Below are positions 10,998-27,947 of a DNA stretch of 64,000 nt, piece by piece; the stretch's first letter is position 1; every line of letters starts with the position of its first letter. The stretch is from assembly GCF_000353285.1 (NCBI RefSeq), contig NZ_KB731324.1:5536577-5600576 (forward strand), in the 5' to 3' direction. The stretch comes from Leptolyngbya boryana PCC 6306 (GTDB lineage Bacteria > Cyanobacteriota > Cyanobacteriia > Leptolyngbyales > Leptolyngbyaceae). The position numbers and the translations under genes are program-made. The notes beneath the pieces are model-generated. The model did not search any database, was not told the origin of the DNA, and saw nothing but the letters and a program-made list of their open reading frames with translations.

Positions 10998-12536
10998 CTA
11001 TGCCGTAACAAAATTCTCTGTGTTCGACTTAGCTTCAATATTGCTCAACTTAGATTCGATCGCGGTTCCCTTAAAGAAATCAGGATTCGCTTCCGTGTAG
11101 AGTCTGTAAGGATTCTCAAACACGTAAGCTCTGAAGTCTGCTTCAGAAATCACGCCTTCTTCCACGAGTTCCCAACTTTCTGCCAACGGCAGCGTGATAT
11201 CGGGTACATCCCAGTGACCCACATCCGAAGAGTAGATCGCATTGATCTTCACACCCAACGGATTCGCTTTATCGTTGAAGGCTGCTGCGATCGTACGATC
11301 GTCAGATTCAGACCCAAAGAAGAACGGATTCACCCAGAGATCGCGGATGTCTTCGATGCTTTCAATGCCAGCCGCAGCAAAATCTTCTAACTCGCTACCC
11401 ACTGGATCGCGACTATAACGATTGAAGGATGCTCCGAGTACGGTGTGAGTCAGTTCCTCTGGGCTGAGATTGTAGCCTTTCGTGATTTCACCACCAAAGC
11501 GCTCAAACAACTGGTACAGTTCATTCGAGTTGGTCAGCGCCGGATTGTAGTTCTGGAGCGCTTTGATATTGCGCTTGGAGTAGCGATCGACGAGATGAAT
11601 GTAAACATGAGCGCCCCAATCGGCTCCGCCTTCTAGCATCGCAACGCGCAATTTCGGAAAACGTCGCGTTACTCCACCAAAGAACAATGCTTTTGCAAAC
11701 GCCTGCGATCCGTCTGCAAAGTGGCCAATGTGATTGTTCATGTAGTTACTAATGGAAGAACGCCCTGTCCAACCTTGGCTTCCATAGTGCGTGGTCACCG
11801 GAACACCCAATTCCACAACCTTTGCCCAGAATGGATCGTAGTCGTACTCGCTATCCAAGCCAAAAAAGTCAGTGTACGAAGCGTACTTCGCAATTTCCGG
11901 AAACTGATCCGGCGGATATTTATCTGCGATCGCTTTAATTGGTCGTCTTACACCACCCGGAATATTGATCACTTTCAAGCCCAAAGTGTTCACCGCAAAT
12001 TCGAGATCCGCGATCGCTTCTTCAGGTGTGGTCATCGTGATTCCAGCCACAGGTGTTAAGCGATCGCTGTACTTGCGATAGATATCTGCATGATAGTGAT
12101 TGATCGCTTTTTGCAGCGCCTGACGATGCTCAGGTTTTGCTCCTCCTGCTGCTAGCGCATTGTTTGGAAACAGCACAGAATAGTCTGAGCCTTGCTCCGC
12201 CTGACGTTCATGAAGCAACTCTGGTAGCGTGTAGGTTGCGAGATCCAGCGTGTTGCGCGTGACTCTTGCCCACCAGGGCGCTCTCAAAGTGCGATAGTAT
12301 TGCCGCTCTTCTGGCGTTTGCTGATACCAATCTTTTCCTTCAATTCTAGAATTCAACCGTGAATTCTCTGCCTTGCGTAACTCGTCTACTAAATGCGAAC
12401 CTCCATAGTTCGCAATATAATCCTCAAATGCAGGCGTAAAGTCATTGGTATGAACATCGGTGTCAATCACCGGATAATTGAGTTGGGCGCGAATCTTAGC
12501 AGAACGAGAATTATTCAGACGGCTATGCTCAACCAT
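10998..12536 (-). CDS. amidohydrolase (metal-dependent, amidohydrolase-2 type)
   Basis: A 512-residue amidohydrolase-2 family protein. The N-terminal motif VIDTDVHTND (residues about 23-32) corresponds to the DxH-type first metal site. Later family landmarks are GVPVTTHYGSQG, VAMLEGGADW and YSSDVGHWD, the last carrying the conserved catalytic Asp region. The substrate is unknown; relatives are decarboxylases or hydrolases of cyclic organic acids. The protein has only three internal Met and no Cys, like other proteins of this region. It is divergent from the SH3-like gene at 12906 and may be controlled from the 369-base gap between them. Confidence 0.85.
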   Translation of the reverse strand: MVEHSRLNNSRSAKIRAQLNYPVIDTDVHTNDFTPAFEDYIANYGGSHLVDELRKAENSRLNSRIEGKDWYQQTPEERQYYRTLRAPWWARVTRNTLDLATYTLPELLHERQAEQGSDYSVLFPNNALAAGGAKPEHRQALQKAINHYHADIYRKYSDRLTPVAGITMTTPEEAIADLEFAVNTLGLKVINIPGGVRRPIKAIADKYPPDQFPEIAKYASYTDFFGLDSEYDYDPFWAKVVELGVPVTTHYGSQGWTGRSSISNYMNNHIGHFADGSQAFAKALFFGGVTRRFPKLRVAMLEGGADWGAHVYIHLVDRYSKRNIKALQNYNPALTNSNELYQLFERFGGEITKGYNLSPEELTHTVLGASFNRYSRDPVGSELEDFAAAGIESIEDIRDLWVNPFFFGSESDDRTIAAAFNDKANPLGVKINAIYSSDVGHWDVPDITLPLAESWELVEEGVISEADFRAYVFENPYRLYTEANPDFFKGTAIESKLSNIEAKSNTENFVTA

Positions 12537-12905
12537 GATTTATTGTCCTCAATTCGTGTTGAGTGAATTACAAGCGAAGTTCACTAAAGCTTGCTTGTCA
12601 AGCTTACTCGTCTCTATCTGAAATGTTGTGTAACTTGGATTACAATTGTAAAATAACCTAACATTTAGATTATCTAATTGATTGAGGACAAAAAATCGAG
12701 ATGATATACTGCAAAATTTAGGACCGCAGAACGACATTGATTAAGTGCTAGCAGCTTAAACTCTCGCTGTACTTAGACTCTCGTCTCTGGTCATATTCGA
12801 TGAGACAATGATAATCGGTCGGGTTGGTAGCGCTTGTTGTTAGCACCCGTCAATGTTACTGATTTCATAAGCTACTGCTTCATTTGATTCAAGGTAGAGA
12901 TAGTT
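12537..12905. other. divergent intergenic region
   Basis: A 369-base gap between the amidohydrolase (minus) and the SH3-like gene (plus). It is AT-rich near the amidohydrolase start and probably holds both promoters. I see no strong repeat or RNA gene here. Confidence 0.4.
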
Positions 12906-13649
12906 ATGTTCAGAAGAAGAGCAGGTTTACTAATTTTTGGAATTGCTGTTCCCTTTAGCTTAGGGACAGGACTATACGCCGCATCACGGTTTGAGAACGT
13001 AGCCAGAGACGAATCACCTCCATCTTTTTCATCGCCCACTCCAGCGCAACGAGGATCTACTTATCCTCAGCGTCCATTTAACTTTGTTGATGATGCAGAA
13101 TCCTACCATGACTTTTATCAGTTCCGTCAACAACTGCGACAAGCAATTAGGCTACGAGATGCTAATTTCATTCGCTCAATTTCTGCACAAGACATCAAGC
13201 TCACGCTTGGACCCCCACAGACATGGAATGATTTAAATATAGATGACCCAAAAGCTCCGATCTGGCAAGAGATGGACAAAACTTTTGCTCTAGGTTGTCG
13301 TAGCAAAAATAAAGGTGAATCTTGGGTTTGTCCTAATATTTTTGTTGATTGGAATAGAGAATTAGATTCTTTTAATTATTTAGTTGTGGTGCAGGATAAA
13401 GTACCAGTTCACGCTCAAGCAAATACAAATGAGTTAGTCATTGGATTTCTGTCAAAAGAAATTGTGAAACTTGATCGTGAGGTACAAAAAGGAGCGCCAT
13501 TTAATTCTGGATGGATACGCATTATTCATCCTAATGGGCAGCTAGGCTATATTGAGAAGAAATTTACTTATTCACCAATTGGCTACCGCGCTGCCTTTGA
13601 AAGGGTGCCTAGCGGTTGGAAACTAGTTTTGTTTTTGGGGGGTGACTAA
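12906..13649 (+). CDS. secreted SH3-like domain protein
   Basis: A 247-residue protein with a signal peptide or N-terminal anchor (residues about 5-26) followed by a Pro/Ser-rich linker. The C-terminal third resembles a bacterial SH3-like domain: VVQDKVPVHAQANTNELVIGFL followed by WIRIIHPNGQLGYIEKKF. The central segment has two Cys (GCRSKNKGESWVC) that could form a disulfide outside the cytoplasm. The fold matches cell-wall or envelope-associated proteins of unknown role. The gene ends 15 bases from the truncated AlkB-like gene on the other strand. Confidence 0.65.
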   Translation: MFRRRAGLLIFGIAVPFSLGTGLYAASRFENVARDESPPSFSSPTPAQRGSTYPQRPFNFVDDAESYHDFYQFRQQLRQAIRLRDANFIRSISAQDIKLTLGPPQTWNDLNIDDPKAPIWQEMDKTFALGCRSKNKGESWVCPNIFVDWNRELDSFNYLVVVQDKVPVHAQANTNELVIGFLSKEIVKLDREVQKGAPFNSGWIRIIHPNGQLGYIEKKFTYSPIGYRAAFERVPSGWKLVLFLGGD

Positions 13650-13664
13650 AGAGAATTGCTGTAA

Positions 13665-14201
13665 CTATTTCCCTTTTGGCACTTGATGCAAGTGAGTCGA
13701 TTGGCAGCCGGGGCGCATCAAGAGCAGCGACCCATGCTGCAAATCAAAATACTGAATCGAGCCGTCCTGCTTGCGTTTGAGGCTAAATTTGCGGGTCGCA
13801 CCGAGGCTGACTGAGGAGATCGCAGGATCTTTTCCCATGCTGGCTTCATCATCAGAGTGCCAACTAATTGAGTCAGATCCAGAGCGATAGCGATTGCCGA
13901 CCGCAATGTGGAAACGATAGTGAGTTTTAGTTTCGATTTTATGATTGAGCCAACGCAAACAATCAGTCCAGGGCAAGGGTTGGAGTAGAACTGAGCCACT
14001 GTACAGATAGTCACACCCTGACTCCCCGTAGATTGTTTCTAATCGAGGCACAGGCAGCGTTTTACCGAAGATTCTAATCTGATGTTGTTGCCAATCAAGA
14101 TGCAAGCTTTGGTCATACAACCAATCGGCTTCTTCAACCGAAAGAAAACTGGGGTCATAATCGAATGGGACATCTGATTGATCGAGGAGTAGAAGTTGCA
14201 T
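13665..14201 (-). CDS. AlkB-like 2OG-Fe(II) oxygenase, C-terminally truncated
   Basis: A 178-residue protein of the AlkB dealkylase family, which repairs alkylated nucleic acid. It has the HxD iron motif (WHSDDE), a GATRKFSLKRK substrate-loop region and the distal His (HLHQVPK). It stops straight after QVPKGK, so the final strand with the RxxxxxR pair that anchors 2-oxoglutarate is missing. Neither of the other two frames restores that motif. The gene may therefore be inactive. It starts just downstream of the repeat array at 14241. Confidence 0.7.
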   Translation of the reverse strand: MQLLLLDQSDVPFDYDPSFLSVEEADWLYDQSLHLDWQQHQIRIFGKTLPVPRLETIYGESGCDYLYSGSVLLQPLPWTDCLRWLNHKIETKTHYRFHIAVGNRYRSGSDSISWHSDDEASMGKDPAISSVSLGATRKFSLKRKQDGSIQYFDLQHGSLLLMRPGCQSTHLHQVPKGK

Positions 14202-15083
14202 GATGCTTTACAAGGTAGAGTCTTGCAGACGAAGATTCATTTCTTGTCGCGTTCCGCGCTTTTTGTCGTTGCTTCCGCGCTTCGTGTCGTGTAGTTGAAT
14301 GGCTGTAGTGGCTGCTGAACTCAACTTTGAGCCATGTAGTATGATCATTTTTTCGCATTCCACGCTTTTTGTCGCGTGTGCCAACTTTGGCTTTTTCTTG
14401 ATTTTGTGAAGGGAGAAGTAATTGCTTAGAAATCTCCCTTGCCATCTCCTAACTCTTAATCGTTTTCAATCCTCACGACCTCATCGATTTTAGTTTTCCC
14501 TCTGTGAACATAGTTGTGTTTGTCTGGATCGATTTGGTGCTGTTGATGGTGCTGTTGAATCTTGTCGCGTCCGTCGCTTTTTGTCGTCGATCCTGCAATT
14601 AATGTCGGGCACAAAAAGGAGTCAAAAAGCTTACACCACCTGAATTACTAACCCATACAGCATCTTCTAGGAAGAATCCCGCAATTCCTGACAAAATCTT
14701 TCCCATAAAAATCTCTCGCTTTTTGTCGCAGAAATCTGAAAACGCCTTTGAAATAGGCGTTTTAGCAACAAGACATCCTCTTAATTGAGAATTAAACAAC
14801 ACAAAGCGCGGGACTGCCTATGAAAAACTCTTTCGTTCAAAATTCAGATGCTATAAGCATTTCAGCACTTAGACGACAAGAAGCGCGGGATCGACGACAG
14901 AAAGCCCCGAACTCGACACCTGATATCTCCAAAGTAATGAGTGCAATGAGTGTTTTTATCGAATCGAGCATTACGATCGAGATGGAATTCTAAACTAATG
15001 CCCGATTCGATAAGATTACGATCGTCAAACAAGCTTTACACCATCTCGAATCTGCTAGATTTAAGATAGGTACCCTCTCTTAA
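14202..15083. other. intergenic region with transposon-end-like repeats
   Basis: An 882-base gap between the AlkB-like gene and the end of the arylsulfotransferase-like gene. Its left part and right part carry oppositely oriented TTTTTGTCG-type repeats (see the repeat entry). The centre has no convincing gene; a 67-codon frame at 14599-14802 has no recognisable features. Confidence 0.5.
14241..14920. repeat. array of CGCTTTTTGTCG repeats, inverted at the far end
   Basis: The 12-mer CGCTTTTTGTCG occurs exactly at 14257, 14363, 14575 and 14717. Related units such as TTCTTGTCGCG and AATTAATGTCGGGC are interspersed. At 14874 and 14895 near-copies appear in inverted orientation (CGACAAGAAGCG, CGACAGAAAGCC). 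Multiple TnsB/TniB-type transposase binding sites of this general sequence flank Tn7-like and Tn5053-like elements of cyanobacteria, including type V-K CRISPR-associated transposons. The layout would suit a deleted, non-autonomous element. No transposase gene is in the window, and the exact termini and target duplication are not visible to me. Confidence 0.45.
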
Positions 15084-16415
15084 TCATAAGAAGGTCAACT
15101 GCCTTGAGAAGCAACGGGAATCCGAAATGTAGTTAGATCGACAGCTGCGATCGGGTGCTGCGATCGAGCAGTCCCCCCCCGGAACCCAATCGTAGGGAAC
15201 AGATTGTGCCCGATAGACCCAGTTGGATGAGAGGATTTTACCAGTCGGCAGGACAAGTTGCCCAAAATGCGGACTCACATACTCCCAAACAATCTCTCCA
15301 TCCGGTGTCACTTGAAAGATGCGTCCATACATTCCTTCATCAATCAGCGTGTTGCCATTAGGCAATCTTCTCGCACTGCTAATAAAAGAACTATGGAACG
15401 ACCAAACGGGGCGACCAGAATTTTCCCCGGTGTATTGCCACATAATTTCTTTGGTAATGGGATTAATCTCTAGCACTCGCGACCCAGAAAACATCCCAAG
15501 CGCGGCAGGTGGAAATCCAGCACTCCCCTGATTATCAAACACAAGTAAGTTTCCTGCACCCGGCAGCCCTTCTGGAATCAGGTGAGCATCGTGTTGTCCA
15601 CTAATTTGATCCACTGGACGAGGAATCGTGGGATTTTGAATGCGTCCGTGGGGGACATCGTAGCGATCGGGGAAATTGGGTCCCAATTGCCAAACAATCT
15701 TGCCCGTTGCTTTTTCGATAATCGCAATGAAATTCCCTTCACGCGCATCCACAATGATGTTGTCTGGATGGAAGCGATCGTCTCCCGCTGCAAACCAGTG
15801 ATTGTTTCCGAGTACATCCATGTTATTGAACGTCGCAAATCCGCCAGTACGGGCTTTGTTCTGCACAACAAACTTTTGCAGATAGGCAAACCCTTCTGGT
15901 GCGATCCCCAACTCGTGAAGATGTTCGCCCAATGTCCATTTCCAGACGATCTCTCCAGCAGGCGTAATCTCAAAAATTGCCTGATCGGTAATGGGTTCCG
16001 TACTGATTCCTGAAATCGGCTGCTCTACGGAACTCAAAATCAGAGTATTCCCGTTGGGAAGTCGTGTCCAGTCGTGATGCTGTCGAGCTGCGCCACCAGG
16101 TGCTTGTTCTCCCCATTGCCAGACGATGTTGCCTTCCCAGTCGAGTTCACCAATGGTTTTGTTATTAAAAATACTGCTCCAGGGTCCTGGTTCGGTGCTA
16201 GAGAGTTGCACTAGAATGTGTCCCCTTTTGCCATCAATCACATTTGGATTCAGGATTTCACTGGGAAATCCTAGATACGACCAAGTGCGCACTTCATTCC
16301 CATTATTATCAATTAAATGGCTCCTACCATCGGGTGAACCGAAAAGGACATACCCATTCCAAGCTCTCTCCGGATCGTAAATAGTAACTCCGGTCGGGAA
16401 AATACTGTAAGGTAT
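15084..16415 (-). CDS. arylsulfotransferase-like protein, probably frameshifted near the C-terminus
   Basis: A beta-propeller protein of the arylsulfotransferase (ASST/Arylsulfotran_2) type. Repeated blade motifs are GELDWEGNIVWQWGEQ, LPNGNTLIL, ITPAGEIVWKW and VTPDGEIVWEY. It would move a sulfate group between aromatic compounds. The first standard start is GTG at 16292, but the family N-terminus (FPTGVTIYDPERAWNGYV) is encoded upstream in the same frame back to an ATA codon at 16415, four bases after AAGGAG. Near the end a run of eight G (15173-15180 on the reverse strand) precedes an unusual Cys-rich tail. Removing one G gives a family-like ending (VDLTTFRIPVASQ) with a stop at 15095. It is third in an operon with an O-methyltransferase and an SDR. 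Confidence 0.7.
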   Translation of the reverse strand: MPYSIFPTGVTIYDPERAWNGYVLFGSPDGRSHLIDNNGNEVRTWSYLGFPSEILNPNVIDGKRGHILVQLSSTEPGPWSSIFNNKTIGELDWEGNIVWQWGEQAPGGAARQHHDWTRLPNGNTLILSSVEQPISGISTEPITDQAIFEITPAGEIVWKWTLGEHLHELGIAPEGFAYLQKFVVQNKARTGGFATFNNMDVLGNNHWFAAGDDRFHPDNIIVDAREGNFIAIIEKATGKIVWQLGPNFPDRYDVPHGRIQNPTIPRPVDQISGQHDAHLIPEGLPGAGNLLVFDNQGSAGFPPAALGMFSGSRVLEINPITKEIMWQYTGENSGRPVWSFHSSFISSARRLPNGNTLIDEGMYGRIFQVTPDGEIVWEYVSPHFGQLVLPTGKILSSNWVYRAQSVPYDWVPGGDCSIAAPDRSCRSNYISDSRCFSRQLTFL

Positions 16416-16426: not shown

Positions 16427-17098
16427 TTAGTCCGAAATCACGCGTGCGATCGCGAGTCCGTCATAGCCCTTACTTCCCACCGTCTGAATCGTGGTTGCCT
16501 TGACTCGTGGTTCTGCTGCTAAGAGCGTATTAAACTGGCGAACACCCTGGATATTCTCGTCGGTGCTATTGGCATCAATAACCGCACCATTGCGGACAAC
16601 ATTATCGACAATGATCACACTACCGGGCTGAGTCAGTTTCAGCGCCCACTGGAAATACTGTGGAATATTAGCTTTGTCCGCATCGATAAATACTAGATCA
16701 AAGGGAGCTTGCCCTTCAGTCGCGAGCTTGGGTAAAGTTTTGAGAGCTTCTCCAACCCGAATTTCAACGACACTTGTGAGTCCAGCCCGATCGATGTTTT
16801 CCTGAGCCACTTCAGCATGTTTAGCATTGGCTTCTAAGGTAATCAGTTTGCCATCCGCAGGCAGCGATCGCGCTAGCCAAATCGTGCTGTAGCCCGCTAA
16901 TGTCCCTAGTTCTAGAATTCTGCGTGCGCCTTGAATTTGAGCTAGGATGTGCAGAAATTTTCCTTGATTAGGTGCAACATTGATTTTGGGGAGATCAGCA
17001 TCGATCGTCGATTGCAGAACTGCTTCCAGTGCCGGATCAGGCGGTACTAGGAGATCCGTAATATAGTCATCAACCGCTGTCCATTGAGTTTGAGTCAT
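16427..17098 (-). CDS. class I SAM-dependent O-methyltransferase (caffeoyl-CoA type)
   Basis: A 223-residue O-methyltransferase of the CCoAOMT-like family that methylates hydroxyls of aromatic substrates. Motifs are ILELGTLAGYSTIWLA (SAM binding), LITLEA, FDLVFIDADKAN (metal-binding Asp) and IIVDNVVRNGAV. I chose ATG 17098 because AAGGA lies just upstream; the frame is open to 17164. From this start the protein has no internal Met and no Cys at all. It lies between an SDR and the arylsulfotransferase-like gene on the same strand, suggesting a pathway acting on an aromatic compound. Confidence 0.88.
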   Translation of the reverse strand: MTQTQWTAVDDYITDLLVPPDPALEAVLQSTIDADLPKINVAPNQGKFLHILAQIQGARRILELGTLAGYSTIWLARSLPADGKLITLEANAKHAEVAQENIDRAGLTSVVEIRVGEALKTLPKLATEGQAPFDLVFIDADKANIPQYFQWALKLTQPGSVIIVDNVVRNGAVIDANSTDENIQGVRQFNTLLAAEPRVKATTIQTVGSKGYDGLAIARVISD

Positions 17099-18049: not shown

Positions 18050-18655
18050 CTAAGAAACAGGAGTGCTGACCGCCACTTTGAAATAAACTGGCTCATTTCC
18101 TGGCTTCCATTTGATGTTGCATCCGATGCTCGGCTTCTGGTCATAAGCAACAGGCCGGTCAGAGAGCACTGCTGCGATCGCGGCTCTTAAATCTTTGCCC
18201 GTTACCGGAATATCATTTCTCGGACGACTATCATCTAATTGCCCACGGTAAACTAAGCGACGACCTTGATCAAATAGAAAAATGTCGGGAGTGCAAGCTG
18301 CAAAATAGTCTTTCGCTGTCTGCTGACTTTCATCGAACAAAAGCGGAAAAGATAAGTTGAGTTCCTCAGCAACCTCCTTCAAGGAATCGGGTGCATCGTC
18401 AGGATGAGTCATCGCATCATTGGAACTAATCGCGACAATTCCAAGATCTCGATCGCGCGTGTCTTGTCCCAATTGGGCAAGCTCGTATTTAATATGTTGT
18501 ACATACGGGCAGTGACGACTAATAAATAAAACAAGCAAAGCTTTCTGGTCAGCAAAATCAGCAAGAGTAATCGTCTGACCCGTCACAACATCGGGAAGTT
18601 GAAAATCGGCTGCCAATGCTCCTAAAGTCAGCATTATTGAAGGAGTAAGCACCAT
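18050..18655 (-). CDS. thioredoxin-fold redoxin (AhpC/TSA-like)
   Basis: A protein of about 201 residues of the thioredoxin/peroxiredoxin-like group common in cyanobacteria. The active site is FISRHCPYVQHIKYEL: a peroxidatic-like Cys followed by PYV, so the second Cys of a CxxC is absent. Further Cys occur in AACTPD and IGCNIKW. It probably reduces peroxides or disulfides in the cytosol. I chose ATG 18655 because CAGGAG sits upstream at a normal distance. The gene is preceded by a 47-base tandem duplication that may contain its promoter. Confidence 0.8.
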   Translation of the reverse strand: MVLTPSIMLTLGALAADFQLPDVVTGQTITLADFADQKALLVLFISRHCPYVQHIKYELAQLGQDTRDRDLGIVAISSNDAMTHPDDAPDSLKEVAEELNLSFPLLFDESQQTAKDYFAACTPDIFLFDQGRRLVYRGQLDDSRPRNDIPVTGKDLRAAIAAVLSDRPVAYDQKPSIGCNIKWKPGNEPVYFKVAVSTPVS

Positions 18656-18673
18656 AAAAAACTCCTGAATCAC

Positions 18674-18753
18674 AAAGAAACTACAGTAAAGCGGGATAGT
18701 TAAAAGTAAACCTAAATAGTAAAGAAACTACAGTAAAGCGGGATAGTTAAAAG
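18674..18753. repeat. tandem 33-base exact repeat upstream of the redoxin gene
   Basis: The 33 bases 18674-18706 (beginning AAAGAAACTACAGTAAAGCG) recur exactly at 18721-18753, a period of 47. The copies lie at the position expected for the redoxin promoter on the minus strand and could be doubled regulator sites. Confidence 0.7.
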
Positions 18754-19076: not shown

Positions 19077-19433
19077 ATGAGATACAAAAAATTTGCTGGC
19101 GGCATAACTGTGCTGTCGCTCTGTTTTGCGTTGGCTCCAATTACAAAAGTAGGTGCATCTGAAAAATCAGTTGCGATCGTAACTCCCAATATTCCTAGCA
19201 ATGTCGCAGGCGCAAATGCCTTTAACCTGTCCAATCTCGCCCGCAGCGGCTACCTTGAGGGCATTCCTAGCGGTAGCCAACTCTCTTGGGAACTTGCAAC
19301 AGGACGCATCACGGCTCACGATATCGTCAAAGCTGGAGTTCAAGCGAATCAGGTTTCCTCTGATGCACTGAACAACCCAGCATACATTCGAGCTATCGAA
19401 CTCAACCTGGCTGAACCTCGGATCAGCGACTAG
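19077..19433 (+). CDS. small secreted protein, unknown function
   Basis: A 118-residue protein with a clear signal peptide (MRYKKFAGGITVLSLCFALAPITKVGA) and the SD TTAGGAG before the ATG. The mature part is Asn/Ala/Ser-rich and predicted soluble, with no internal Met and no Cys after cleavage. I do not recognise a family. It is flanked on both sides by copies of the same near-palindromic 15-mer and lies upstream of the Met-free porin, so it may belong to the same regulated set. Confidence 0.6.
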   Translation: MRYKKFAGGITVLSLCFALAPITKVGASEKSVAIVTPNIPSNVAGANAFNLSNLARSGYLEGIPSGSQLSWELATGRITAHDIVKAGVQANQVSSDALNNPAYIRAIELNLAEPRISD

Positions 19434-19699: not shown

Positions 19700-20205
19700 C
19701 ACACTCCGTCTAGGATAAGAGGTTTAAGAATTTTTCCTTGCTCTTGTACTACGGTGAATCGATAGAGATTAAGTAGTATTATGAGCCTATTTCCATGAAT
19801 AAATCAACCTTTCCTTTATGAATAATTGCGATCGCTGTCACAATTTATCTCCAGAATAGTTACGGTTGTTCGAGCTTGAAACGAGTCTCTCCGGGAAAAT
19901 GTATTCAATTTAGCTTGATTTATAGAAAAGCTTGTGAAACGATACTCTGAACGAATAAAACTACTTAATACCTATAAATTTACAGTAGTTTTAAGACTCG
20001 GTTAATCGCATTACTCTTGTCGATCGCATCAATTGAAGGGGTGCTTCTACGCCGCTTGAAGTGCGCCTTTGACCAAAGTACTGTCCTACCACAAAGCGGA
20101 TCTCTTGCTGTCGAATTTCAGCAGTGAGTTCAAATCATTCTTGCTTTGAATCGTACTTGCCCTTGTCCTTAGCGATGTTTGCAAATTTGGATGTGAGGTT
20201 ATTGA

Positions 20206-21903
20206 ATGTTGAAAATTTCATGGAATTCTCGATTCTCTTGGTCACTGTTTCTAAGTACTGGTATTTTGCTGGCATCAACCAGTCATGCAACAAAAGCAGC
20301 GGCTTCAGAGGTCACTCCGTTACCGCTTGAGCAGACTCGCTCAAATCTCCCTACTCCAAACGTTTCTCAAATCGAGCAATCTCTTGACTCAACTGTGCAG
20401 CCCATCAATCGACTGTCGAATCAAGTCACCTCGGTTTCTCAGCTTTCGGATGTTCGACCAACCGATTGGGCTTTTCAAGCACTACAGTCTTTGGTCGAAC
20501 GCTATGGGTGCATTGCCGGATATCCCAATCGCACTTATCGCGGCAATCGTGCACTGACTCGCTATGAGTTTGCAGCCGGACTGAATGCTTGCCTCGATCG
20601 GGTCAATGAACTGATTGCAGCAGCGACAGCAGATTTAGTTAAGAAAGAAGATTTAGCAACCCTACAAAAATTACAAGAACAGTTTGCGACAGAATTAGCA
20701 ACCTTGCGGGGGCGGGTCGATAAGCTAGAAGCACGAACTACGACACTAGAGAAACAACAATTTTCGACCACAACGAAACTGCAAGGGGATGCAATCTTCA
20801 TTGCGGCTGATACCTTTGGAAATCGCGCAAACAATACTGCTGCAAACGATACTCAAGATGACACTCAAGCTTTCTTTGCATATCGGGTGAGGCTGTCTCT
20901 CTTGACGAGCTTCACGGGTAAAGATTTGCTCTTTACTCGTCTTGCTGCCAATAACGTTCCCAATCTACAAACGTCAACGGGAACAGCTGAAACTCGTTTA
21001 ACGATCGACAGAAGCAGTTTTCCAGAGAGTTCCTTATATCTCGACTCTCTTCACTACCGATTTCCGCTCGGAAATCAGACCACGGTTTGGGTTGGAACTC
21101 GTCAGCTTCAGCCTGTTGTATTTGCACCGAATCTCAATCCATTGATCGGAGGTGCAAATGGTGCTATTTCTCGATTCGCAACTCACAATCCAACCATCTA
21201 TCGACCTGGTTTTGACGGTGCAGGTGTTGGGGTGTCCCATCAGTTTAGTCCGCAGCTTAGATTCGGCTTAGGCTACTTAACCGATGATACTCAAGCTCCA
21301 AATCCTAATGCAGGACGAGGAATTTTTAGCGGCAATAATCTGCTTTATAGCCAACTCACTTTTACGCCGAGTCGCAACTTTGATATTGCGTTTAGCTATG
21401 GACGCAAGTACTTTGGGTCCAACACTGGGTTCAACCTAACAGGAGGAACAGGAAGCGCTTTTGCGAGAAACCCATTCCAGCAAAATGCAACTGTTTCCGA
21501 TAATTTCGGGCTGCAATTTCTCTGGAAAACAAGCCCTACGCTCCAAATTGGAGGATGGTTTGGCTATACTCGCGCTTTCCAAGTTAAAGGAGCAGAAAAC
21601 GAAGCAACCATCCTGAACGGAGCGATATCAGTTGCATTTCCCGATCTATTCAAGAAAGGAAATCTCGGCGGAATCATTGTTGGGATTCCGCCTAAAGCAA
21701 CAAGTAACAACTTCCGCCCTACACCCACAGCCGCTCGCCGCGTTGACTCAGATACTTCACTACATCTAGAAGCGTTCTACACGTTCAAAGTGAACAACAA
21801 CGTCAGCATTACTCCTGGTGTTTTTCTAATTACTAATCCTGAGCAAAATCGTAATAATGATTCGATTTTGGTGGGAACAGTTCGCACAAACTTTAGTTTC
21901 TAA
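20206..21903 (+). CDS. SLH-domain outer membrane porin without internal methionine
   Basis: A 565-residue cyanobacterial porin. After a signal peptide, residues about 85-145 form one S-layer homology domain (VRPTDWAFQALQSLVERYGC, LTRYEFAAGLNACLDR) that binds the peptidoglycan-linked polymer. Residues about 145-200 are a coiled coil (LATLQKLQEQFATELATLRG). The remainder alternates as beta strands of an OprB-like 16-strand barrel and ends in Phe (VRTNFSF), the usual sorting signal. There is no Met after the start and only the two Cys of the SLH domain. GAGG lies eight bases before the ATG. It probably replaces a normal porin under sulfur limitation; this is inference. Confidence 0.9.
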   Translation: MLKISWNSRFSWSLFLSTGILLASTSHATKAAASEVTPLPLEQTRSNLPTPNVSQIEQSLDSTVQPINRLSNQVTSVSQLSDVRPTDWAFQALQSLVERYGCIAGYPNRTYRGNRALTRYEFAAGLNACLDRVNELIAAATADLVKKEDLATLQKLQEQFATELATLRGRVDKLEARTTTLEKQQFSTTTKLQGDAIFIAADTFGNRANNTAANDTQDDTQAFFAYRVRLSLLTSFTGKDLLFTRLAANNVPNLQTSTGTAETRLTIDRSSFPESSLYLDSLHYRFPLGNQTTVWVGTRQLQPVVFAPNLNPLIGGANGAISRFATHNPTIYRPGFDGAGVGVSHQFSPQLRFGLGYLTDDTQAPNPNAGRGIFSGNNLLYSQLTFTPSRNFDIAFSYGRKYFGSNTGFNLTGGTGSAFARNPFQQNATVSDNFGLQFLWKTSPTLQIGGWFGYTRAFQVKGAENEATILNGAISVAFPDLFKKGNLGGIIVGIPPKATSNNFRPTPTAARRVDSDTSLHLEAFYTFKVNNNVSITPGVFLITNPEQNRNNDSILVGTVRTNFSF

Positions 21904-23586: not shown

Positions 23587-24078
23587 CTAACTCAGAGCAT
23601 TGACAACATAATCAATGTAGGAGTTCAATTCCACAGCAGGATCACCTGTCAAACCGTGATTGGATTTGATGTGTTTGAGAGCTTCGATGTACCAGCTTGG
23701 AGAAAGCTCGAATGTACGGTTGATTTCAGACAAACCCCCAATCAGATAATCATCGATAGGACCCGTCCCTCCAGCAACCAAAGCATAGCTGATAATCCGC
23801 AAGTAGTAGCCAATGTCACGGACGCACTTCGACTTGCCGCGTGCATCAGAAGCATAGTTTGGACCTTGCAACTGTGTGGTGTAGGGGAACTTTTGGTAAA
23901 CCGCGTTTGCAGCAGCTTCAGCTAAACTCGGAGCTTTGCTCGACAGTTGTTTCGCTGCTTCCAATGAGCTTGCGGCTTGGCGGAACCGACCAAAAGCAAC
24001 TTGAAATTCAGTGCTGCTCAAAAAGCGTCCTTGGGAATCAGCAGCGCTCACCGCTTCAGTTAGTGGAGTTTTGGACAT
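23587..24078 (-). CDS. cpcA: phycocyanin alpha subunit, sulfur-poor type
   Basis: A 163-residue alpha subunit of C-phycocyanin, the phycobilisome rod antenna protein. Landmarks are [19 protein letters not shown] at the N-terminus, the chromophore Cys85 in [14 protein letters not shown] and the [17 protein letters not shown] segment. It has no Met after the start and no other Cys. Positions where ordinary CpcA has Met or Cys (YYLRMVTYC-type segment) carry Ile and Ala here (YYLRIISYA). AGGAGA precedes the ATG. It is the second gene of a two-gene unit with cpcB, 59 bases downstream. This is the pattern of the sulfur-starvation phycocyanin PC3 of Calothrix PCC 7601. Confidence 0.95.
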
Positions 24079-24137
24079 TGATCAAGATTCTCCTAAATGT
24101 GTACATGAATAGATAAAACAGAGAGATGTGCAATTGA

Positions 24138-24659
24138 TTAGCCAACTGCTGCCGCTGCTCGATCGAAGTATGTGGCAACTTCCGCTAGAAGACTGCTGCA
24201 ATCTCCTTGCGTAACACCATTGGGATCACCTGCGATCGCCAGCGATGCTTCTTTCAGCTTTTGAATTCCAGCCGCAACCGATGCACCCGGAACGCCTAAA
24301 GCCAAATAAGTTTCTCGCAAGCCGTTCAATGCTCGGTCTTCCAAAATGCTGACATCACCCGTGAAAATTGAATAAGTGACATAGCGCAAGATGATTTCCA
24401 AGTCGCGCAAGCAAGCAGCAGCCCGACGGTTCGTGTAAGCATTTCCACCTGGAGCAATCAGTTGAGGTTGTTCTTCAAACAGACTGCGAGCAGCATTTGC
24501 AACGATCGCAGATGCGCTACCGGAAATTCGGTTAACGACATCAATGCGCTTATTGCCATCCCGCACCAAACCAAGCAAAGCATCGAGCTGACCCGGATTC
24601 AGATAGTCACCGCGAGCATCTGCCTGAGAAATCACTTTTGTAAACGCATCTTGTACCAT
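24138..24659 (-). CDS. cpcB: phycocyanin beta subunit, sulfur-poor type
   Basis: A 173-residue beta subunit of C-phycocyanin. The two chromophore cysteines are retained: Cys83 in [14 protein letters not shown] and Cys154 in TQGDCSSLL. All other sulfur residues of usual CpcB are gone: the segment usually RMAACLRDMEI is [18 protein letters not shown] is DRALNGL (Ala110), and the C-terminal FDRACAAV is FDRAAAAV. Asn73, which is methylated in phycobiliproteins, is kept in GGNAY. The SD TTAGGAGAAGG is strong. The gene heads the cpcBA unit and its expression is probably controlled from the 889-base AT-rich gap upstream. Confidence 0.95.
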
Positions 24660-25198
24660 TATTGCCTTCTCCTAATTGTAACGTTGACGAAAGTTTGAGT
24701 CTAAAACTCAAGTCATAGAAGGGAATACTATATTTCCTAAAATCCTGAAAAACATCAAGTGGAAATTAGCCTGTTACTTCTAATTCTTCTATTAGAAATA
24801 ACGAGAACAGTTCGGAAGAATTTCAAACTGCATTTATCCCCTACAAATTAGTTTTTACAACAGTGTTATGCCTATTTTTGTTAAAAAATATTGAGCAAAT
24901 AAGTCAGTTAAACATCATAAAAAAGAGGAGTATTTTTAGAACTGATTAAATCCCTCTTCAATCATTAATGATAAAAAGCAATTAAGTTATTACGTATACA
25001 AATCACAAGATTAATTCAGCAAACTGCTCGCCAATTCGGCGTTTTACCCCAAAAAAGTACTTTTCAAAACTTAAAGATTTGCTCTCAGAATCCTCTAGAT
25101 TTTTCGATTAGTTCATCAATTCAAATTATTAATAATTGAGTTTCGCTTATTAAAATTGATAGAAGCATTGCTAAAAACAATTTACTCAATAACGCAAG

Positions 25199-25240
25199 AA
25201 AATAGAAGCAAACTACCTGTTGAAGTTTGCTTCTATTTTT
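25199..25240. terminator. perfect 16-base stem hairpin, bidirectional terminator candidate
   Basis: Arms AAAATAGAAGCAAACT (25199-25214) and AGTTTGCTTCTATTTT (25224-25239) match perfectly around a 9-base loop. A/T ends give a U-run on either strand. It would end transcripts coming from the TauD-like gene before cpcB. Confidence 0.7.
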
Positions 25241-25312
25241 ACAACTGTACTTAATTTGTTGAATTATAAAGCCCAAAAGTAGGAAAGTCATTAAAAATCA
25301 AAAACCACTCAT

Positions 25313-25349
25313 ATTTTCGCCGAAACGCCTTAGCTTTTTAGGCGAAAAT
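25313..25349. terminator. second hairpin downstream of the TauD-like gene
   Basis: Arms ATTTTCGCC (25313-25321) and GGCGAAAAT (25341-25349) surround a 19-base loop. It lies about 200 bases after the TauD-like stop. Confidence 0.45.
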
Positions 25350-25548
25350 TATTATGCGGTTTCTATTCTTGATGACAGTACTTCTCGTCTTTTTACATCC
25401 AAAATAATTCGATGAGCGAAGCAATCCTAAGCGGATGTTTTACTGCGCTCACGTTATCTTTTCGTCCCGAATTCCATTTTGGGGCGGGTGAATGCTTGTG
25501 ACTCAACCTCATTCAACGATCGATTCCCATCTTTGGGACAAATTGACA

Positions 25549-26466
25549 TTAAGCTATGACAGGTTCTTGCGGTGTATAAGAAGATGAATCTCCCTTCAGG
25601 GCTTGACTATGCTTACCATCAACACTGAGCGGAAGATCTCCTGAGATAGTAACTCGCTGCATCCGGCGAGACTGATTGCCATAGTCTGCGATCGCATAGT
25701 GCTGAGTCGCTCGGTTGTCCCAAAATGCGACATCTCCTGCTTGCCAGCGCCAGCGGACTGTATTCTCTAAGCGAGTGACATAAGACTGTAGCAATCGAAT
25801 CAGATCATTGGACTCTGTTTGAGATAGCCCTTGCAAACGCCGCACAAATCCACCAATAAAAAGTCCCCGCTCTCCTGACTCAGGATGCACTCTGACAACC
25901 GGGTGAACTGTTTCGTAGACCGTTGAAGTAAACACTTCCCGGTAAGCTCTAAATTCTTCCGATAAATCTAGAGCAGGAGCCGCATAGTCATAAGCATTAC
26001 TATGAACCGCCCAAAGTTGATCGGCTAGATTTCTAAGAGATTCAGGCAGATCTTGATAAGCAGTGACCGAATTTGCCCAAACAGTATCACCACCAACTGG
26101 AGGAATGGTTACTGCTCTGAGAACTGAGCCGAGCGGTGGGCGATCGACAAACGTCACATCAGTATGCCAATGATTTGCGCGAGCCACCGTGCGATCGTAG
26201 TCCAAATCTAAAACTTCTGGCTGTCCTTCAAGCGATGGCACTGTGGGATGAGCCGTTGTGACCTCACCAAACCGACGCGCAAATGCAACCTGTCCATCAG
26301 CATCTAAGTTCTGGTTGCGAAAGAAAATGACTTTATAGTGTACGAGTGCTTTGCGAATCTCACCAATCGTTTCATTCGTAAGAGCGTCACGCAAATCAAT
26401 TTCGCCGATTTCAGCCCCAATCCGTCCAGCGATCGGTTGAACTTTTAGACTTGTCGTTGTTGTCAT
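25549..26466 (-). CDS. TauD/TfdA-family 2-oxoglutarate dioxygenase
   Basis: A 305-residue Fe(II)/2-oxoglutarate dioxygenase related to taurine dioxygenase and alkylsulfatase AtsK. These enzymes hydroxylate an organosulfur compound and release sulfite or sulfate. Iron ligands are visible as HTD (His101, Asp103) in ANHWHTDVTF and His256 in RATQHYAIADY; the 2OG-binding Arg is in the following RRMQRV. It has one internal Met and no Cys. It is divergent from the SsuA-like lipoprotein gene across a gap with a 16-base inverted repeat, which is a typical layout for sulfonate uptake and use. The exact substrate is inferred. Confidence 0.88.
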   Translation of the reverse strand: MTTTTSLKVQPIAGRIGAEIGEIDLRDALTNETIGEIRKALVHYKVIFFRNQNLDADGQVAFARRFGEVTTAHPTVPSLEGQPEVLDLDYDRTVARANHWHTDVTFVDRPPLGSVLRAVTIPPVGGDTVWANSVTAYQDLPESLRNLADQLWAVHSNAYDYAAPALDLSEEFRAYREVFTSTVYETVHPVVRVHPESGERGLFIGGFVRRLQGLSQTESNDLIRLLQSYVTRLENTVRWRWQAGDVAFWDNRATQHYAIADYGNQSRRMQRVTISGDLPLSVDGKHSQALKGDSSSYTPQEPVIA

Positions 26467-26861
26467 TGCTTAAAAGTCTCCAGAGTCTTGTACTTCGCTT
26501 TGCATCGAGTTGAGCGAATTGTTAGACGAACTAACTGAGCAATTCTCCGTTATATCTACCGACTTAGTCAAGAATAAGTCGTAAAGAAATTCTAGATTCT
26601 CGTCATACTGCACACAGGCAGATTGACCAAAAATGTCAAGTCAGATCGATACAAAATATGGCTGAAAGCTCGATTCAATTGGCTGCAATCGCTCAACAGA
26701 GATCTTGATTTTGCAAAGCGGATGTGACATTATCGGTCAAGTTAAATCTACAGTATCTCTACCAATTTTACGTAGATTTAACTTGACGGATTTTCATCAT
26801 TTGTCAAACAACAGTCTGACCACACCAAAGTTTACCGTTAGTTTTTGCATTGTAACCAGCT
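26467..26861. other. divergent control region of the TauD-like and SsuA-like genes
   Basis: A 395-base gap between divergent genes. It holds the 16-base perfect inverted repeat at 26736-26787 and presumably both promoters. Confidence 0.5.
26736..26787. promoter_or_regulatory. 16-base perfect inverted repeat, operator or leader hairpin
   Basis: GTCAAGTTAAATCTAC (26736-26751) and GTAGATTTAACTTGAC (26772-26787) are exact inverted copies with a 20-base spacer. It lies 75 bases before the SsuA-like start. The spacing would suit a LysR-type regulator with two half-sites, or a hairpin in the mRNA leader. Confidence 0.5.
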
Positions 26862-27947
26862 ATGCTCAATCGAATTTTCATTGTTTTACGATCTGTTGTG
26901 GGTCGATCCTTTAGTCTTAGGGATAGCACGTTAGCTATCCCGGTTTGGCTGCGCTTTGCTTTACTGGGGTTTGGTTTGAGTATTGCGATCGCAGCTTGCT
27001 CTCCCACAACACCGACCGTCTCGAATAGTCCAAACGCTTCTCCAGTTGCGACAAACGCACCTGCAAGTAATGTGGTGCGCTTTGGAATTCAGAAGGCAAC
27101 GATCTTGCTCAAAACAAAAGGCGATATTGATAAGCGCTTAGCTTCAGAGGGTGTGAAGGTGGAATGGACAGAATTCCCTGCAGGCCCGCCAATGCTTGAA
27201 GCGCTCAATGCAGGAGCGATCGATATTGGTCCAGTCGGAGAATCACCCCCTATTTTTGCTCAAGCCGCAGGAGCCGCATTAACTTACGCAGCCGCGATTG
27301 CTCCGAATCCAAAAGGTAATGGTGTACTTGTCCTTAAAGATTCACCAATTCAGAGTGTTGCCGATCTCAAAGGTAAAAAAGTAGTGTTTGCTAAAGGATC
27401 AAGTGCAAATTTCTTGATTGTGCAACTACTAGAAAAGGCAGGATTAAAATTTAGCGATATCGAGCCTATCTACTTAACCCCAGCAGATGCTCGCGCAGCA
27501 TTCGTCAAAGGAGATGCAGATGCCTGGGTAATTTGGGATCCTTTTTTCGCAGCAGCTGAAGTAGGAACAAATTCTCGCGTGCTCGCAGATGGGACAGATG
27601 TCAATAAGTTAGGCGGCTACTATATTGCATCACGTAAGTTTGCCGCCGAGCAACCTAAAATCTTGAAAGCAATTTTAGAGGAAGTTCGGAATCTAGAAAA
27701 TTGGTCTGACAAGAATCGTGATGAAGTTGCAACTGTGCTCACTGATGCACTGAAGCTAGATGCAGAAGCTGTCAAGAAAGCAACACAGCGCAGAGTGTTT
27801 GGACTCACTGCAGTAACCAACGATATCATTGCTGAGCAACAGAGAGTTGCAGATACCTACTACCAACTCAAGCTGATTCCGAAACCAGTCAAAGTTCAAG
27901 ACGCGATTCTGCCACCTGATCAAGTCGCTGCTTTTGCTTTGAATTAA
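26862..27947 (+). CDS. SsuA/NrtA-like substrate-binding lipoprotein, second copy
   Basis: A 361-residue sulfonate-type periplasmic binding protein. The signal ends in the lipobox IAAC at about residue 46. The family block GPVGESPPIFAQAAGA matches the first copy, and AWVIWDPFFAAAEVG aligns with the ligand segment. It has a single internal Met (PPMLEA) and one Cys, the lipid anchor. The gene is alone on the strand, with no permease or ATPase, and diverges from the TauD-like gene. ATG 26862 is the first start; the long hydrophilic stretch before the hydrophobic segment could mean a later start. Confidence 0.85.
   Translation: MLNRIFIVLRSVVGRSFSLRDSTLAIPVWLRFALLGFGLSIAIAACSPTTPTVSNSPNASPVATNAPASNVVRFGIQKATILLKTKGDIDKRLASEGVKVEWTEFPAGPPMLEALNAGAIDIGPVGESPPIFAQAAGAALTYAAAIAPNPKGNGVLVLKDSPIQSVADLKGKKVVFAKGSSANFLIVQLLEKAGLKFSDIEPIYLTPADARAAFVKGDADAWVIWDPFFAAAEVGTNSRVLADGTDVNKLGGYYIASRKFAAEQPKILKAILEEVRNLENWSDKNRDEVATVLTDALKLDAEAVKKATQRRVFGLTAVTNDIIAEQQRVADTYYQLKLIPKPVKVQDAILPPDQVAAFALN

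What the first reader, a model, noticed from the sequence alone, without database searches (positions are those of the whole stretch)
10998..27947. A whole sulfur-sparing gene island, not only the antenna
Counting Met (beyond the start) and Cys by eye: O-methyltransferase 0/0 in 223 aa, SDR 0/1 in 266, porin 0/2 in 565, small secreted protein 0/1 in 118, TauD-like 1/0 in 305, SsuA-like 1/1 in 361, amidohydrolase 3/0 in 512. The adjacent MFS protein has 16/6. The contrast suggests selection for sulfur economy on a co-regulated set, which I have not seen described beyond phycocyanin.
Basis: partly seen in the sequence, partly recalled or inferred. Interest (0 to 1): 0.9.

Follow-up and report, generated by a model that had tools for sequence, protein, structure and literature searches.

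The report
Sulfur-poor sulfur-starvation gene cluster
[quoted passage not shown] the thrift principle is known from other bacteria, but this coupled cluster and its switch look new.

Summary
The counts are right. Seven of 14 ORFs in 10998-27947 lie at or below the 5th percentile for Met+Cys of a genome sample; the interval pools to 1.29% against 2.67%, and no sampled run of 13 genes goes below 1.75%. SDR, OMT, TauD-like, amidohydrolase and phycocyanin orthologues are equally poor; SDR, OMT and phycocyanin paralogues are not. Porins are low anyway. The interval is one end of a larger sulfur cluster (C1 about 5.48-5.565 Mb) with SsuA, SsuD, MetY and sulfate-binding proteins. A 28-bp dyad learned from other genomes is 47- to 82-fold denser there and precedes TauD/SsuA, the porin and, weakly, the redoxin-SDR-OMT operon. 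A sulfur-starvation regulon with sulfur-poor products is well supported. No expression data were available.

The parts
26862..27947 (+). SsuA-family aliphatic sulfonate-binding protein, Met/Cys 1/1 in 361 aa
   Evidence: NCBIfam TIGR01728 236 bits against cut-off 163.5; counts
25549..26466 (-). TauD-like dioxygenase, 1/0 in 305 aa
   Evidence: PF02668; NCBIfam taurine dioxygenase 278 bits, under its cut-off 313; 15 rows of at least 60% identity, 14 distinct genes, have 0-0.66% Met+Cys
26751..26778 (+). operator-like dyad between TauD and SsuA
   Evidence: 29.8 bits with the 10-site matrix, 27.0 with the 25-site matrix, both built from other genomes only; also a match of model R1
26548..26575 (+). 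second, weaker operator-like site before TauD
   Evidence: 18.2 bits, 14.4; not among the 16 R1 matches
24138..24659 (-). CpcB3, sulfur-poor phycocyanin beta, 0/2 in 173 aa
   Evidence: TIGR01339 above cut-off; three own paralogues of 70-78% identity have 4.14-5.85% Met+Cys against 1.18% in the same columns
23587..24078 (-). CpcA3, sulfur-poor phycocyanin alpha, 0/1 in 163 aa
   Evidence: TIGR01338 above cut-off
24838..24860 (-). conserved block upstream of cpcB3, probably part of its own promoter; not the shared operator
   Evidence: block conserved with variations in an alignment of 12 low-sulfur cpcB3 upstream regions; function inferred; coordinates counted from the upstream sequence printed
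20206..21903 (+). OprB/SOMB-type porin, 0/2 in 565 aa; of 12 porins read in full the only one with no Met beyond the start and the only one with the site
   Evidence: PF04966, NF033921, paralogue comparison
19964..19991 (+). operator-like site before the porin
   Evidence: 19.7 bits, 22.3; R1 match
19746..19773 (-). second operator-like site before the porin
   Evidence: 16.2 bits, 17.9; R1 match
19077..19433 (+). small secreted protein, 0/1 in 118 aa; a 44% homologue near cpcA3 in G007 has 0/0
   Evidence: no Pfam family
18725..18752 (-). weak operator-like site before the redoxin-SDR-OMT genes, copy 1
   Evidence: 16.4 bits, 14.5; not among the 16 R1 matches
18678..18705 (-). identical weak operator-like site, copy 2, 47 bp away
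   Evidence: 16.4 bits, 14.5; not among the 16 R1 matches
18050..18673 (-). AhpC/redoxin-like protein, not depleted (1/3 in 194 from the called start)
   Evidence: PF00578
17171..17971 (-). short-chain dehydrogenase, 0/1 in 266 aa
   Evidence: PF13561; 4 orthologues 0-0.76%, 25 more distant homologues 1.62-4.24%
16427..17098 (-). O-methyltransferase, 0/0 in 223 aa from the inner ATG
   Evidence: PF01596; 1 orthologue 0% in aligned columns, 28 more distant homologues 1.48-4.32%; the orthologue in G010 (L212) has a 27.5-bit site 74 bp upstream
15084..16292 (-). arylsulfotransferase-like protein, 4/3 in 402 aa, not clearly depleted
   Evidence: PF05935
10998..12536 (-). amidohydrolase, 3/0 in 512 aa; no operator found
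   Evidence: PF04909; 8 orthologues 0.20-0.70%, one of them partial; best upstream score -3.4 bits
2498..3664 (+). Sulf_transp (PF04143) membrane protein, 5/3 in 388 aa
   Evidence: counts
2103..2130 (-). operator-like site 368 bp upstream of the Sulf_transp gene
   Evidence: 22.8 bits, 21.9; not among the 16 R1 matches
903..1991 (+). third SsuA-like binding protein, 3/1 in 362 aa
   Evidence: 44% to the SsuA at 26862; PF13379; counts

Best explanation
The interval is the downstream end of a chromosomal sulfur-starvation cluster of a cyanobacterium (inferred from its phycocyanin genes and from the relatives; no tool named it). When sulfate is scarce, a sulfur-responsive regulator, most likely a CRP/FNR-family protein of the CysR type, acts at a 28-bp dyad (about CGGTAAATCTATCGATTTACCGTAGATT) before uptake and desulfonation genes (sulfonate- and sulfate-binding proteins, an SsuB-like ATPase, FMN reductase, TauD-like dioxygenase, redoxin-SDR-OMT genes, one or two porins), opening organic sulfur sources. 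Because these proteins are made in bulk exactly when Met and Cys are short, selection has removed Met and Cys from the abundant soluble, periplasmic and outer-membrane products, and much less from permeases and regulators. The neighbouring cpcB3A3 pair serves the same economy by replacing the sulfur-rich antenna, but probably from its own promoter, with no copy of the dyad. Shown here: composition, homologue contrasts, gene content, the shared site and its specificity. Inferred: induction by sulfur limitation, the identity of the regulator, high abundance, and the substrates.
For: Composition; Trp, Tyr and His not depleted. Homologues. Size of the cluster. Site: EM on 21 regions of other genomes scores 154.5 against 89.7-96.9 in three shuffled sets, which had fewer starts (25 against 60). 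In 2.06 Mb of the own genome (25-site matrix) 10 hits of at least 15 bits fall in the 48 kb of window 1-28000 plus L132 and 9 in the other 2016 kb, about 47-fold; counting L142, which I added to the cluster after seeing its hits, 14 in 68 kb against 5 in 1996 kb, 82-fold. Whole genome: 11 of 16 R1 matches at E up to 10 lie in C1:5494036-5563354; of the ten best, the two outside precede a sulfate-binding protein and a NIL-domain gene. Genes behind the site are sulfur-poor: 21 genes, median 0.93% against 2.71%, p 4e-6; the 15 outside the window, median 1.10%, p 5e-4. Of 12 porins read in full only the one with the site has no Met beyond the start. Regulator: site before 5 of 7 homologues (E below 1e-30) of a CRP-type gene; two sites of at least 15 bits on the S. 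elongatus plasmid, none of 100 simulated plasmids reaching 15; a paper titled as showing its genes to be regulated by sulfur and CysR is in the reference list of PMC8049743.
Against: No expression data. No site before cpcB3 (best 5.1 bits in 24660-25548; at most 3.1 bits within 600 bp of 12 low-sulfur copies) nor before the amidohydrolase here (of 9 loci including the own one, only L209 has a weak 13.6-bit site). The two sites before the redoxin are only 14.5 bits, and of the seven window sites R1 finds three. R1 scored only 150 of 3844 candidates and its E-values are weak one by one (best 4e-4). Half of the ORFs are not depleted. For 13 interval ORFs pooled, Glu (z -2.6) and Gln (-2.3) are lower than Cys (-2.1), after Met (-4.8). 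Low Met/Cys in porins and secreted proteins is partly general. One strong site lies inside a called ORF (L132:14924) and one where no gene was called (L132:11360). The CRP-type case rests on seven homologues; two of them have no site, and in the own genome the site is 353 bp away and much nearer to the sulfate-binding-protein gene.
Confidence: 0.82

Rival explanations
1. The low Met/Cys content is a property of the protein families (porins, secreted and periplasmic binding proteins, TauD) and has nothing to do with sulfur supply; the cluster is low because it holds such families.
For: 11 of 11 other porins read in full are 0.65-1.30%; many of the lowest proteins in the genome sample look secreted or repetitive; six of seven TauD relatives under 60% identity are also 0-0.70%.
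Against: Cytoplasmic-type enzymes show it most: SDR 0-0.76% in 4 orthologues against 1.62-4.24% in 25 more distant homologues, OMT 0% against 1.48-4.32% in 28, CpcB 1.18% against 4.14-5.85% in three close paralogues; GST and FMN reductase 0/0. Own SsuA-like proteins rise from 0.97-1.21% to 2.35-3.50% with distance (4 of 7 loci aligned).
Confidence: 0.08
2. Met and Cys were removed because they are easily oxidised: the proteins work under oxidative stress, not under sulfur shortage.
For: A redoxin gene heads the SDR-OMT genes; sulfur limitation induces antioxidant defences (abstract and passages of PMC12581299 and PMC12016511).
Against: Trp, Tyr and His, also oxidisable, are not depleted in 11 pooled proteins (z +0.2, +1.1, -0.3, against Met -4.9 and Cys -3.6; the 11 were chosen as low in Met/Cys, so only the other residues test anything); the site sits before sulfate-binding proteins.
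Confidence: 0.05
3. The whole interval including cpcB3A3 and the amidohydrolase is one regulon under the same operator.
For: TauD and cpcB3 are neighbours on one strand; SsuA-TauD-cpcB3-cpcA3 is kept in G007 and cpc3 sits among Ssu-type genes in G001; the amidohydrolase occurs in 9 of 144 genomes (own included), 8 of which also have a TauD match.
Against: No site before cpcB3 in 12 low-sulfur copies or before the amidohydrolase; cpcB3 has its own conserved upstream block; read-through over 889 bp from TauD was not tested.
Confidence: 0.25
4. The dyad is bound by the LysR-type or the Rrf2-type regulator encoded divergently at C1 about 5489-5491 kb rather than by a CRP-type CysR.
For: A site lies between the two genes here and in G018 and before the LysR gene in L338; the LysR orthologue is present in 11 of 11 genomes of the family with a sulfur-poor cpc3 against 19 of 42 overall (sets typed; genomes whose CpcA was not cut out were taken as lacking it, and relatedness confounds this); the Rrf2 protein resembles CymR below its cut-off; one of the plasmid sites lies before an Rrf2 gene.
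Against: Only 1 of 55 cyanobacterial LysR loci, mostly Nostoc, has a site of at least 12 bits upstream; an Rrf2 homologue was found in 1 of the 55.
Confidence: 0.25

Closest known systems
Sulfate-starvation-induced sulfonate systems of E. coli (TauABCD, SsuEADCB)
   Same: Same kinds of genes and the same graded pattern: TauA 0/0, TauD 1/0, SsuE 0/0, SsuA 0.94%, SsuD 1.05%; ATPases and permeases 1.9-2.4%.
   Different: Here the genes are spread over about 80 kb (read only in part between 5494 and 5517 kb) with three SsuA-like proteins, sulfate-binding proteins, porins and an antenna pair; the dyad was not compared with E. coli regulator sites; the window dioxygenase is under the TauD cut-off.
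Sulfur-sparing phycocyanin of Tolypothrix (Fremyella) PCC 7601 (Mazel and Marliere 1989; Gutu et al. 2011; both seen only as references in PMC4424289)
   Same: A phycocyanin pair with 0/2 and 0/1 Met/Cys beside normal paralogues.
   Different: Here it sits inside a sulfonate-scavenging cluster and lacks an adjacent linker gene, whereas several relatives have 288-aa linker-like ORFs with 0/0 beside it (named as linkers from memory of the sequence type).
Sulfur-regulated plasmid genes and CysR of Synechococcus elongatus PCC 7942
   Same: A sulfur gene cluster with some sulfur-poor members (CyD 0.48%, EpsC 0.63%) and two matches to the dyad; [quoted passage not shown]
   Different: Milder depletion (median 1.90% in 18 proteins against 2.64% in 10 others, 28 chosen of 54 annotated), no phycocyanin listed; homology of our CRP-type gene to that CysR was not tested.
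Sulfur-sparing responses of Gordonia NB4-1Y and Rhodococcus IGTS8
   Same: Induced oxygenases average 0.88-1.33% against 3.01% for the proteome (passages of PMC7661421); MetY without Cys (passages of PMC8557817); our MetY is 0.69%.
   Different: Actinobacteria, shown by expression data; no operator or antenna link in the passages seen.

Membership tests
Aliphatic sulfonate (Ssu/Tau) utilisation | SsuA-family binding protein | tested here: met
   TIGR01728 236 bits, cut-off 163.5
Aliphatic sulfonate (Ssu/Tau) utilisation | Alkanesulfonate monooxygenase SsuD in the cluster | tested here: met
   L142:18682-19833, TIGR03565 614 bits, cut-off 518.2
Aliphatic sulfonate (Ssu/Tau) utilisation | True taurine dioxygenase TauD | tested here: not met
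   NF007104 278 bits, below cut-off 313; therefore called TauD-like
Aliphatic sulfonate (Ssu/Tau) utilisation | Growth on sulfonates, induction by sulfate starvation | not testable with these tools
   needs cultures
Sulfur-sparing phycocyanin Cpc3 | Phycocyanin alpha and beta subunits | tested here: met
   TIGR01338 285.5 (cut-off 269.45) and TIGR01339 294.4 bits (cut-off 279.3)
Sulfur-sparing phycocyanin Cpc3 | Met/Cys far below paralogues of the same genome | tested here: met
   CpcB 1.18% against 4.14-5.85% in the same columns
Sulfur-sparing phycocyanin Cpc3 | Sulfur-poor linkers beside the pair | tested here: not met
   no linker-size ORF called between 23199 and 25549 except cpcA3 and cpcB3
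Sulfur-sparing phycocyanin Cpc3 | Expression at low sulfate only | not testable with these tools
   needs RNA or protein data
CysR-type regulon of cyanobacteria | Common site before sulfur genes | tested here: met
CysR-type regulon of cyanobacteria | CRP/FNR-family regulator linked to the site | tested here: inconclusive
   site before 5 of 7 homologues with E below 1e-30; PF13545 and PF00325 above cut-off; no NCBIfam cut-off reached
CysR-type regulon of cyanobacteria | Homology to S. elongatus CysR | not tested
   that chromosome was not fetched; the annotated collections hold phages, plasmids and E. coli only
CysR-type regulon of cyanobacteria | Covers the antenna genes | tested here: not met
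   no site before cpcB3
Cyanobacterial iron-uptake (SOMB) porins | Profile NF033921 | tested here: met
   610 bits, cut-off 100; the family name does not show iron transport

The most novel reading that the evidence does not exclude
A CysR-type CRP-family protein controls one sulfur-starvation regulon across many cyanobacteria through a conserved 28-bp dyad, and selection by sulfur cost acts regulon-wide: genes captured by the dyad, including one of many porin copies and ordinary SDR, OMT and other enzymes, lose their Met and Cys, so that dyad plus depletion predicts new sulfur-starvation genes of unknown function. The sulfur-poor antenna has been brought into the same chromosomal neighbourhood but under a second, separate control.
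Probability: 0.37. Interest if true: 0.65.

Novelty: new variant of a known kind. Interest (0 to 1): 0.52.

Why it matters
Sulfur-poor phycocyanin is a classic case of element economy; how far that economy reaches in cyanobacteria and what switches it can now be tested directly. The cluster gives a concrete gene list, a candidate operator that can be deleted, a built-in control (porins of one genome with and without the site), and a prediction that the antenna is switched separately. Joining the dyad with low Met/Cys content gives a cheap way to find unknown sulfur-scavenging genes in other genomes.

Tried and rejected
LysR as the binder: a site before the gene here, in G018 and in L338, but only 1 of 55 genome-contig loci has a site of at least 12 bits (55 of the 65 loci were used, the ten left out being non-cyanobacterial or Prochlorococcus); kept only as a rival. 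Oxidation resistance: disfavoured by Trp, Tyr and His content. Porin as a showpiece: weakened, since all porins read are low; only the absence of Met sets it apart (12 read in full and one in part of about 18 porin places). One regulon for everything: not supported for cpcB3 and the amidohydrolase. A strand mistake lost minus-strand loci; one search replaces it, and the rows L121 and L129 of TauD are the same gene. One search failed by a syntax error. Notes written during the work hold errors that the report mends: 12 of 16 whole-genome matches in the cluster (recount: 11); a 'sbpA' in L142 that one search shows to be a rhodanese; 5 of 6 CRP-type homologues (with L030, 47% identical, E 1e-37 and no site, it is 5 of 7).

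Limits of the motif work: I first saw the motif by eye, which showed own and foreign sequences together, and chose the training genes from sulfur clusters; the EM used foreign sequences only, from 8 genomes (2 of the same genus, 6 of the same class, two of those of one genus), so sites are not independent. Of its 21 regions the 10 with a site of at least 20 bits made the first matrix; of 28 foreign sites of at least 20 bits I aligned 25 and left out L183:13462, L186:2589 and L199:2315. Shuffles were of 2-base blocks and had fewer starts than the real run. The simulated plasmids follow first-order base composition.

Papers: nine searches (listings); passages read of PMC8557817, PMC12581299, PMC4424289, PMC7661421, PMC2491639, PMC12016511, PMC8049743; PMC3067615 (Gutu et al.) is not held. 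I saw no description of this dyad or of a phycocyanin within a sulfonate cluster in those listings, which proves little, as most subscription papers are missing. Recalled, from no call: that CysR of PCC 7942 belongs to the CRP family; that CRP-family sites have two 5-bp halves 6 bp apart; the names MetX and CysK for ORFs of L142 and of relatives, SbpA/CysT/CysW-like for ORFs of relatives, and the linker identity.

Full report
What was checked. I compared them with the same chromosome. The 1439 ORFs of at least 100 aa have a median Met+Cys of 2.72% and a 5th percentile of 0.79%. In 10998-27947 I count 14 ORFs, three of them added by hand; 7 are at or below the 5th percentile. The interval pools to 1.29% with the MFS protein and 0.87% without; the lowest of 319 runs of 13 neighbouring called genes elsewhere is 1.75%, and none of 20000 random sets of 14 genes is as low. 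One piece with only 7 called genes (L045) is lower, 1.18%.

It is not the whole interval. ORFs 12906, 13665, the arylsulfotransferase-like gene, the redoxin and the MFS protein are ordinary or only mildly low. The permease and the regulators of the wider cluster are ordinary (SsuC-like 2.60%, LysR 3.22%, Rrf2 2.65%).

It is a matter of sulfur. In five window proteins (amidohydrolase, OMT, SDR, TauD-like, SsuA) plus six from upstream, chosen because they are low, Met and Cys have z -4.9 and -3.6, while Trp, Tyr and His are not depleted. For the 13 interval ORFs without the MFS, Met is lowest (-4.8), followed by Glu, Gln and Cys (-2.6, -2.3, -2.1), with Asn and Phe raised. Where homologues carry Met, the SDR and OMT most often carry Ile or Leu.

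Homologues (all). SDR: 4 orthologues of at least 60% identity have 0-0.76%, 25 more distant ones 1.62-4.24%. OMT: 1 orthologue 0%, 28 others 1.48-4.32%. TauD-like: 15 rows (14 distinct genes) 0-0.66%; of 7 more distant ones 6 are still 0-0.70% and one 2.61%. Amidohydrolase: 8 orthologues 0.20-0.70%. CpcB: three close own paralogues 4.14-5.85% against 1.18%. CpcA: of 29 homologues 10 are as low as the window copy. SsuA: own relatives 0.97, 1.21, 2.35 and 3.50% (4 of 7 loci aligned). Porin: 11 own paralogues 0.60-1.48% in the aligned columns against 0.40%. So the porin is the weakest case: low Met/Cys belongs to its family, although the window porin is the only one of 12 read in full with no Met beyond the start.

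The cluster is larger than the finding. Two further SsuA-like proteins lie at C1:5528896 and at the start of the window. The 20 kb before the window hold an FMN reductase (0/0 in 187 aa), an ABC ATPase and a permease (SsuB/SsuC-like), SsuA2, a dienelactone-hydrolase-like ORF, a GST (0/0 in 227 aa) and an NtaA/DmoA-type monooxygenase (4/0 in 451 aa). Further upstream (L142 and loci) are a rhodanese, MetY (0.69%), a LysR and an Rrf2 regulator, SsuD, ORFs that look like MetX and CysK, two sulfate-binding proteins (0/1 in 381 and 0/0 in 378 aa) and another porin (0/2 in the 473 aa that were readable). The stretch from 5494 to 5517 kb was seen only in 3-kb loci. The window itself adds a Sulf_transp membrane protein at 2498-3664.

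Relatives. The TauD-like gene occurs in 18 of 144 genomes, own included, at E 1e-40. In G007 of the same genus SsuA, TauD, cpcB3 and cpcA3 keep their order; the small secreted protein and the porin follow, but as an inverted pair and without the MFS gene. In G001 cpc3 lies among Ssu-type genes. In G018, G029 and G012 the sulfur-poor cpc3 lies near a CysK-like gene, and in G018 and G029 also near genes that look like sulfate uptake or MetY (named there from sequence starts only). Several relatives have sulfur-poor linker-like ORFs beside cpc3; the window has none.

The shared site. Upstream regions of sulfur genes suggested a dyad. An EM search on 21 regions from 8 other genomes found a 28-bp motif with a log-likelihood ratio of 154.5, against 89.7-96.9 in three shuffled sets. 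Scanning 2.06 Mb of the own genome with the 10-site matrix put the three best hits before the FMN reductase, SsuA1/TauD and SsuA2, and others before the SsuB-like ATPase, the porin (two) and the redoxin-SDR-OMT genes (two). With a 25-site matrix, 10 hits of at least 15 bits fall in the 48 kb of window 1-28000 plus L132 and 9 in the remaining 2016 kb; if L142, recognised as sulfur DNA after its hits, is counted in, 14 against 5. Over the whole genome a profile of the 25 foreign sites gives 16 matches at E up to 10 (150 of 3844 candidates scored), 11 of them in C1:5494036-5563354; among the ten best the two outside precede another sulfate-binding protein (0/1 in 369 aa) and a NIL-domain gene. 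Not all sites fit: one is inside a called GST ORF, one has no called gene behind it, and five hits of at least 15 bits elsewhere, one of them before an aldo-keto-reductase-like gene (0.87%), are mostly unexplained.

Site and depletion go together. The 21 genes within 450 bp behind a site of at least 16 bits have a median of 0.93% against 2.71% (p 4e-6); the 15 of them outside the window, which were not chosen for low Met/Cys, have 1.10% (p 5e-4). The high values are regulators, neighbours on the far side of a site, the redoxin, the Sulf_transp protein and SsuD (1.8-4.5%).

Who binds. The LysR gene has a site upstream here, in G018 and in L338, but only 1 of 55 LysR loci from named cyanobacterial records, mostly Nostoc, has one. 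A CRP/FNR-type gene next to a sulfate-binding protein (L274:1881-2459) has a site within about 450 bp in 5 of 7 homologues with E below 1e-30 (L274, L199, L200, L287, L338; not L334 and not L030 of the own genome); none of these five sites is in the 25-site set, but in L274 the site is nearer to the sulfate-binding-protein gene (families). On the sulfur plasmid of S. elongatus PCC 7942 two sites reach 18.7 and 15.2 bits, where 100 simulated plasmids reach at most 14.5; they lie before the DUF4242 gene and the Rrf2 gene, whose regulation I did not check. A reference in PMC8049743 is titled as showing that genes of this plasmid are regulated by sulfur and CysR. So a CysR-type protein is my preferred binder, by inference.

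The antenna stands apart. No site of the shared motif is found in 24660-25548 (best 5.1 bits) or within 600 bp of 12 low-sulfur cpcB3 copies (best 3.1 bits). They share a different upstream block. The amidohydrolase has no site here, and of its eight orthologous loci one has a weak one (13.6 bits).

Known or new. Low Met/Cys content of sulfur-acquisition proteins is known: E. coli TauA 0/0 in 320 aa, TauD 1/0 in 283, SsuE 0/0 in 191, with TauB and TauC at 2.2-2.4%, the same graded pattern as here. [quoted passage not shown] The sulfur-poor phycocyanin is known (passage and references in PMC4424289). What I did not find described in nine searches is the cyanobacterial cluster that joins both, the dyad, and the spread of the depletion to SDR, OMT, GST and a porin copy. 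I therefore call it a new variant of a known kind.

Noticed in passing
window 24838-24860 and upstream of 12 low-sulfur cpcB3 genes: A conserved block roughly 200-290 bp before the start of sulfur-poor cpcB3 genes, distinct from the shared dyad; possibly a separate sulfur-responsive promoter.
   Followed up: partly
G000:C1:5503377 and 6183818 (L273, L274): Two similar sulfate-binding-protein genes with an identical dyad, about 680 kb apart, one beside a CRP/FNR-type regulator gene.
   Followed up: partly
window 18678-18752: The 28-bp site is present twice in identical form 47 bp apart before the redoxin-SDR-OMT genes, as if duplicated.
   Followed up: no
G000:C1:2222085 (L272): A strong dyad (31.6 bits) between an ORF that looks like glutamate synthase and a 92-aa NIL-domain protein, far from the sulfur cluster.
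   Followed up: partly
L132:11360-11387: A strong dyad (23.6 bits) where no gene of normal size was called; a small gene or a remnant may be missed.
   Followed up: no
L184, L190, L194, L195 (relatives): 288-aa linker-like ORFs with 0 Met and 0 Cys beside sulfur-poor cpc3; the window lacks them.
   Followed up: no
L352 (S. elongatus PCC 7942 plasmid 1) 17041 and 9882: Matches to the dyad on the sulfur-related plasmid, before a DUF4242 gene and an Rrf2 gene.
   Followed up: partly
L271:2574-2927, behind the FMN reductase gene of the own genome: A 117-aa secreted-looking ORF (0/1) that resembles by eye the small secreted protein at window 19077-19433.
   Followed up: no
window 15084-16292: An arylsulfotransferase-like gene in the middle of the cluster without clear Met/Cys depletion; role unknown.
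   Followed up: no
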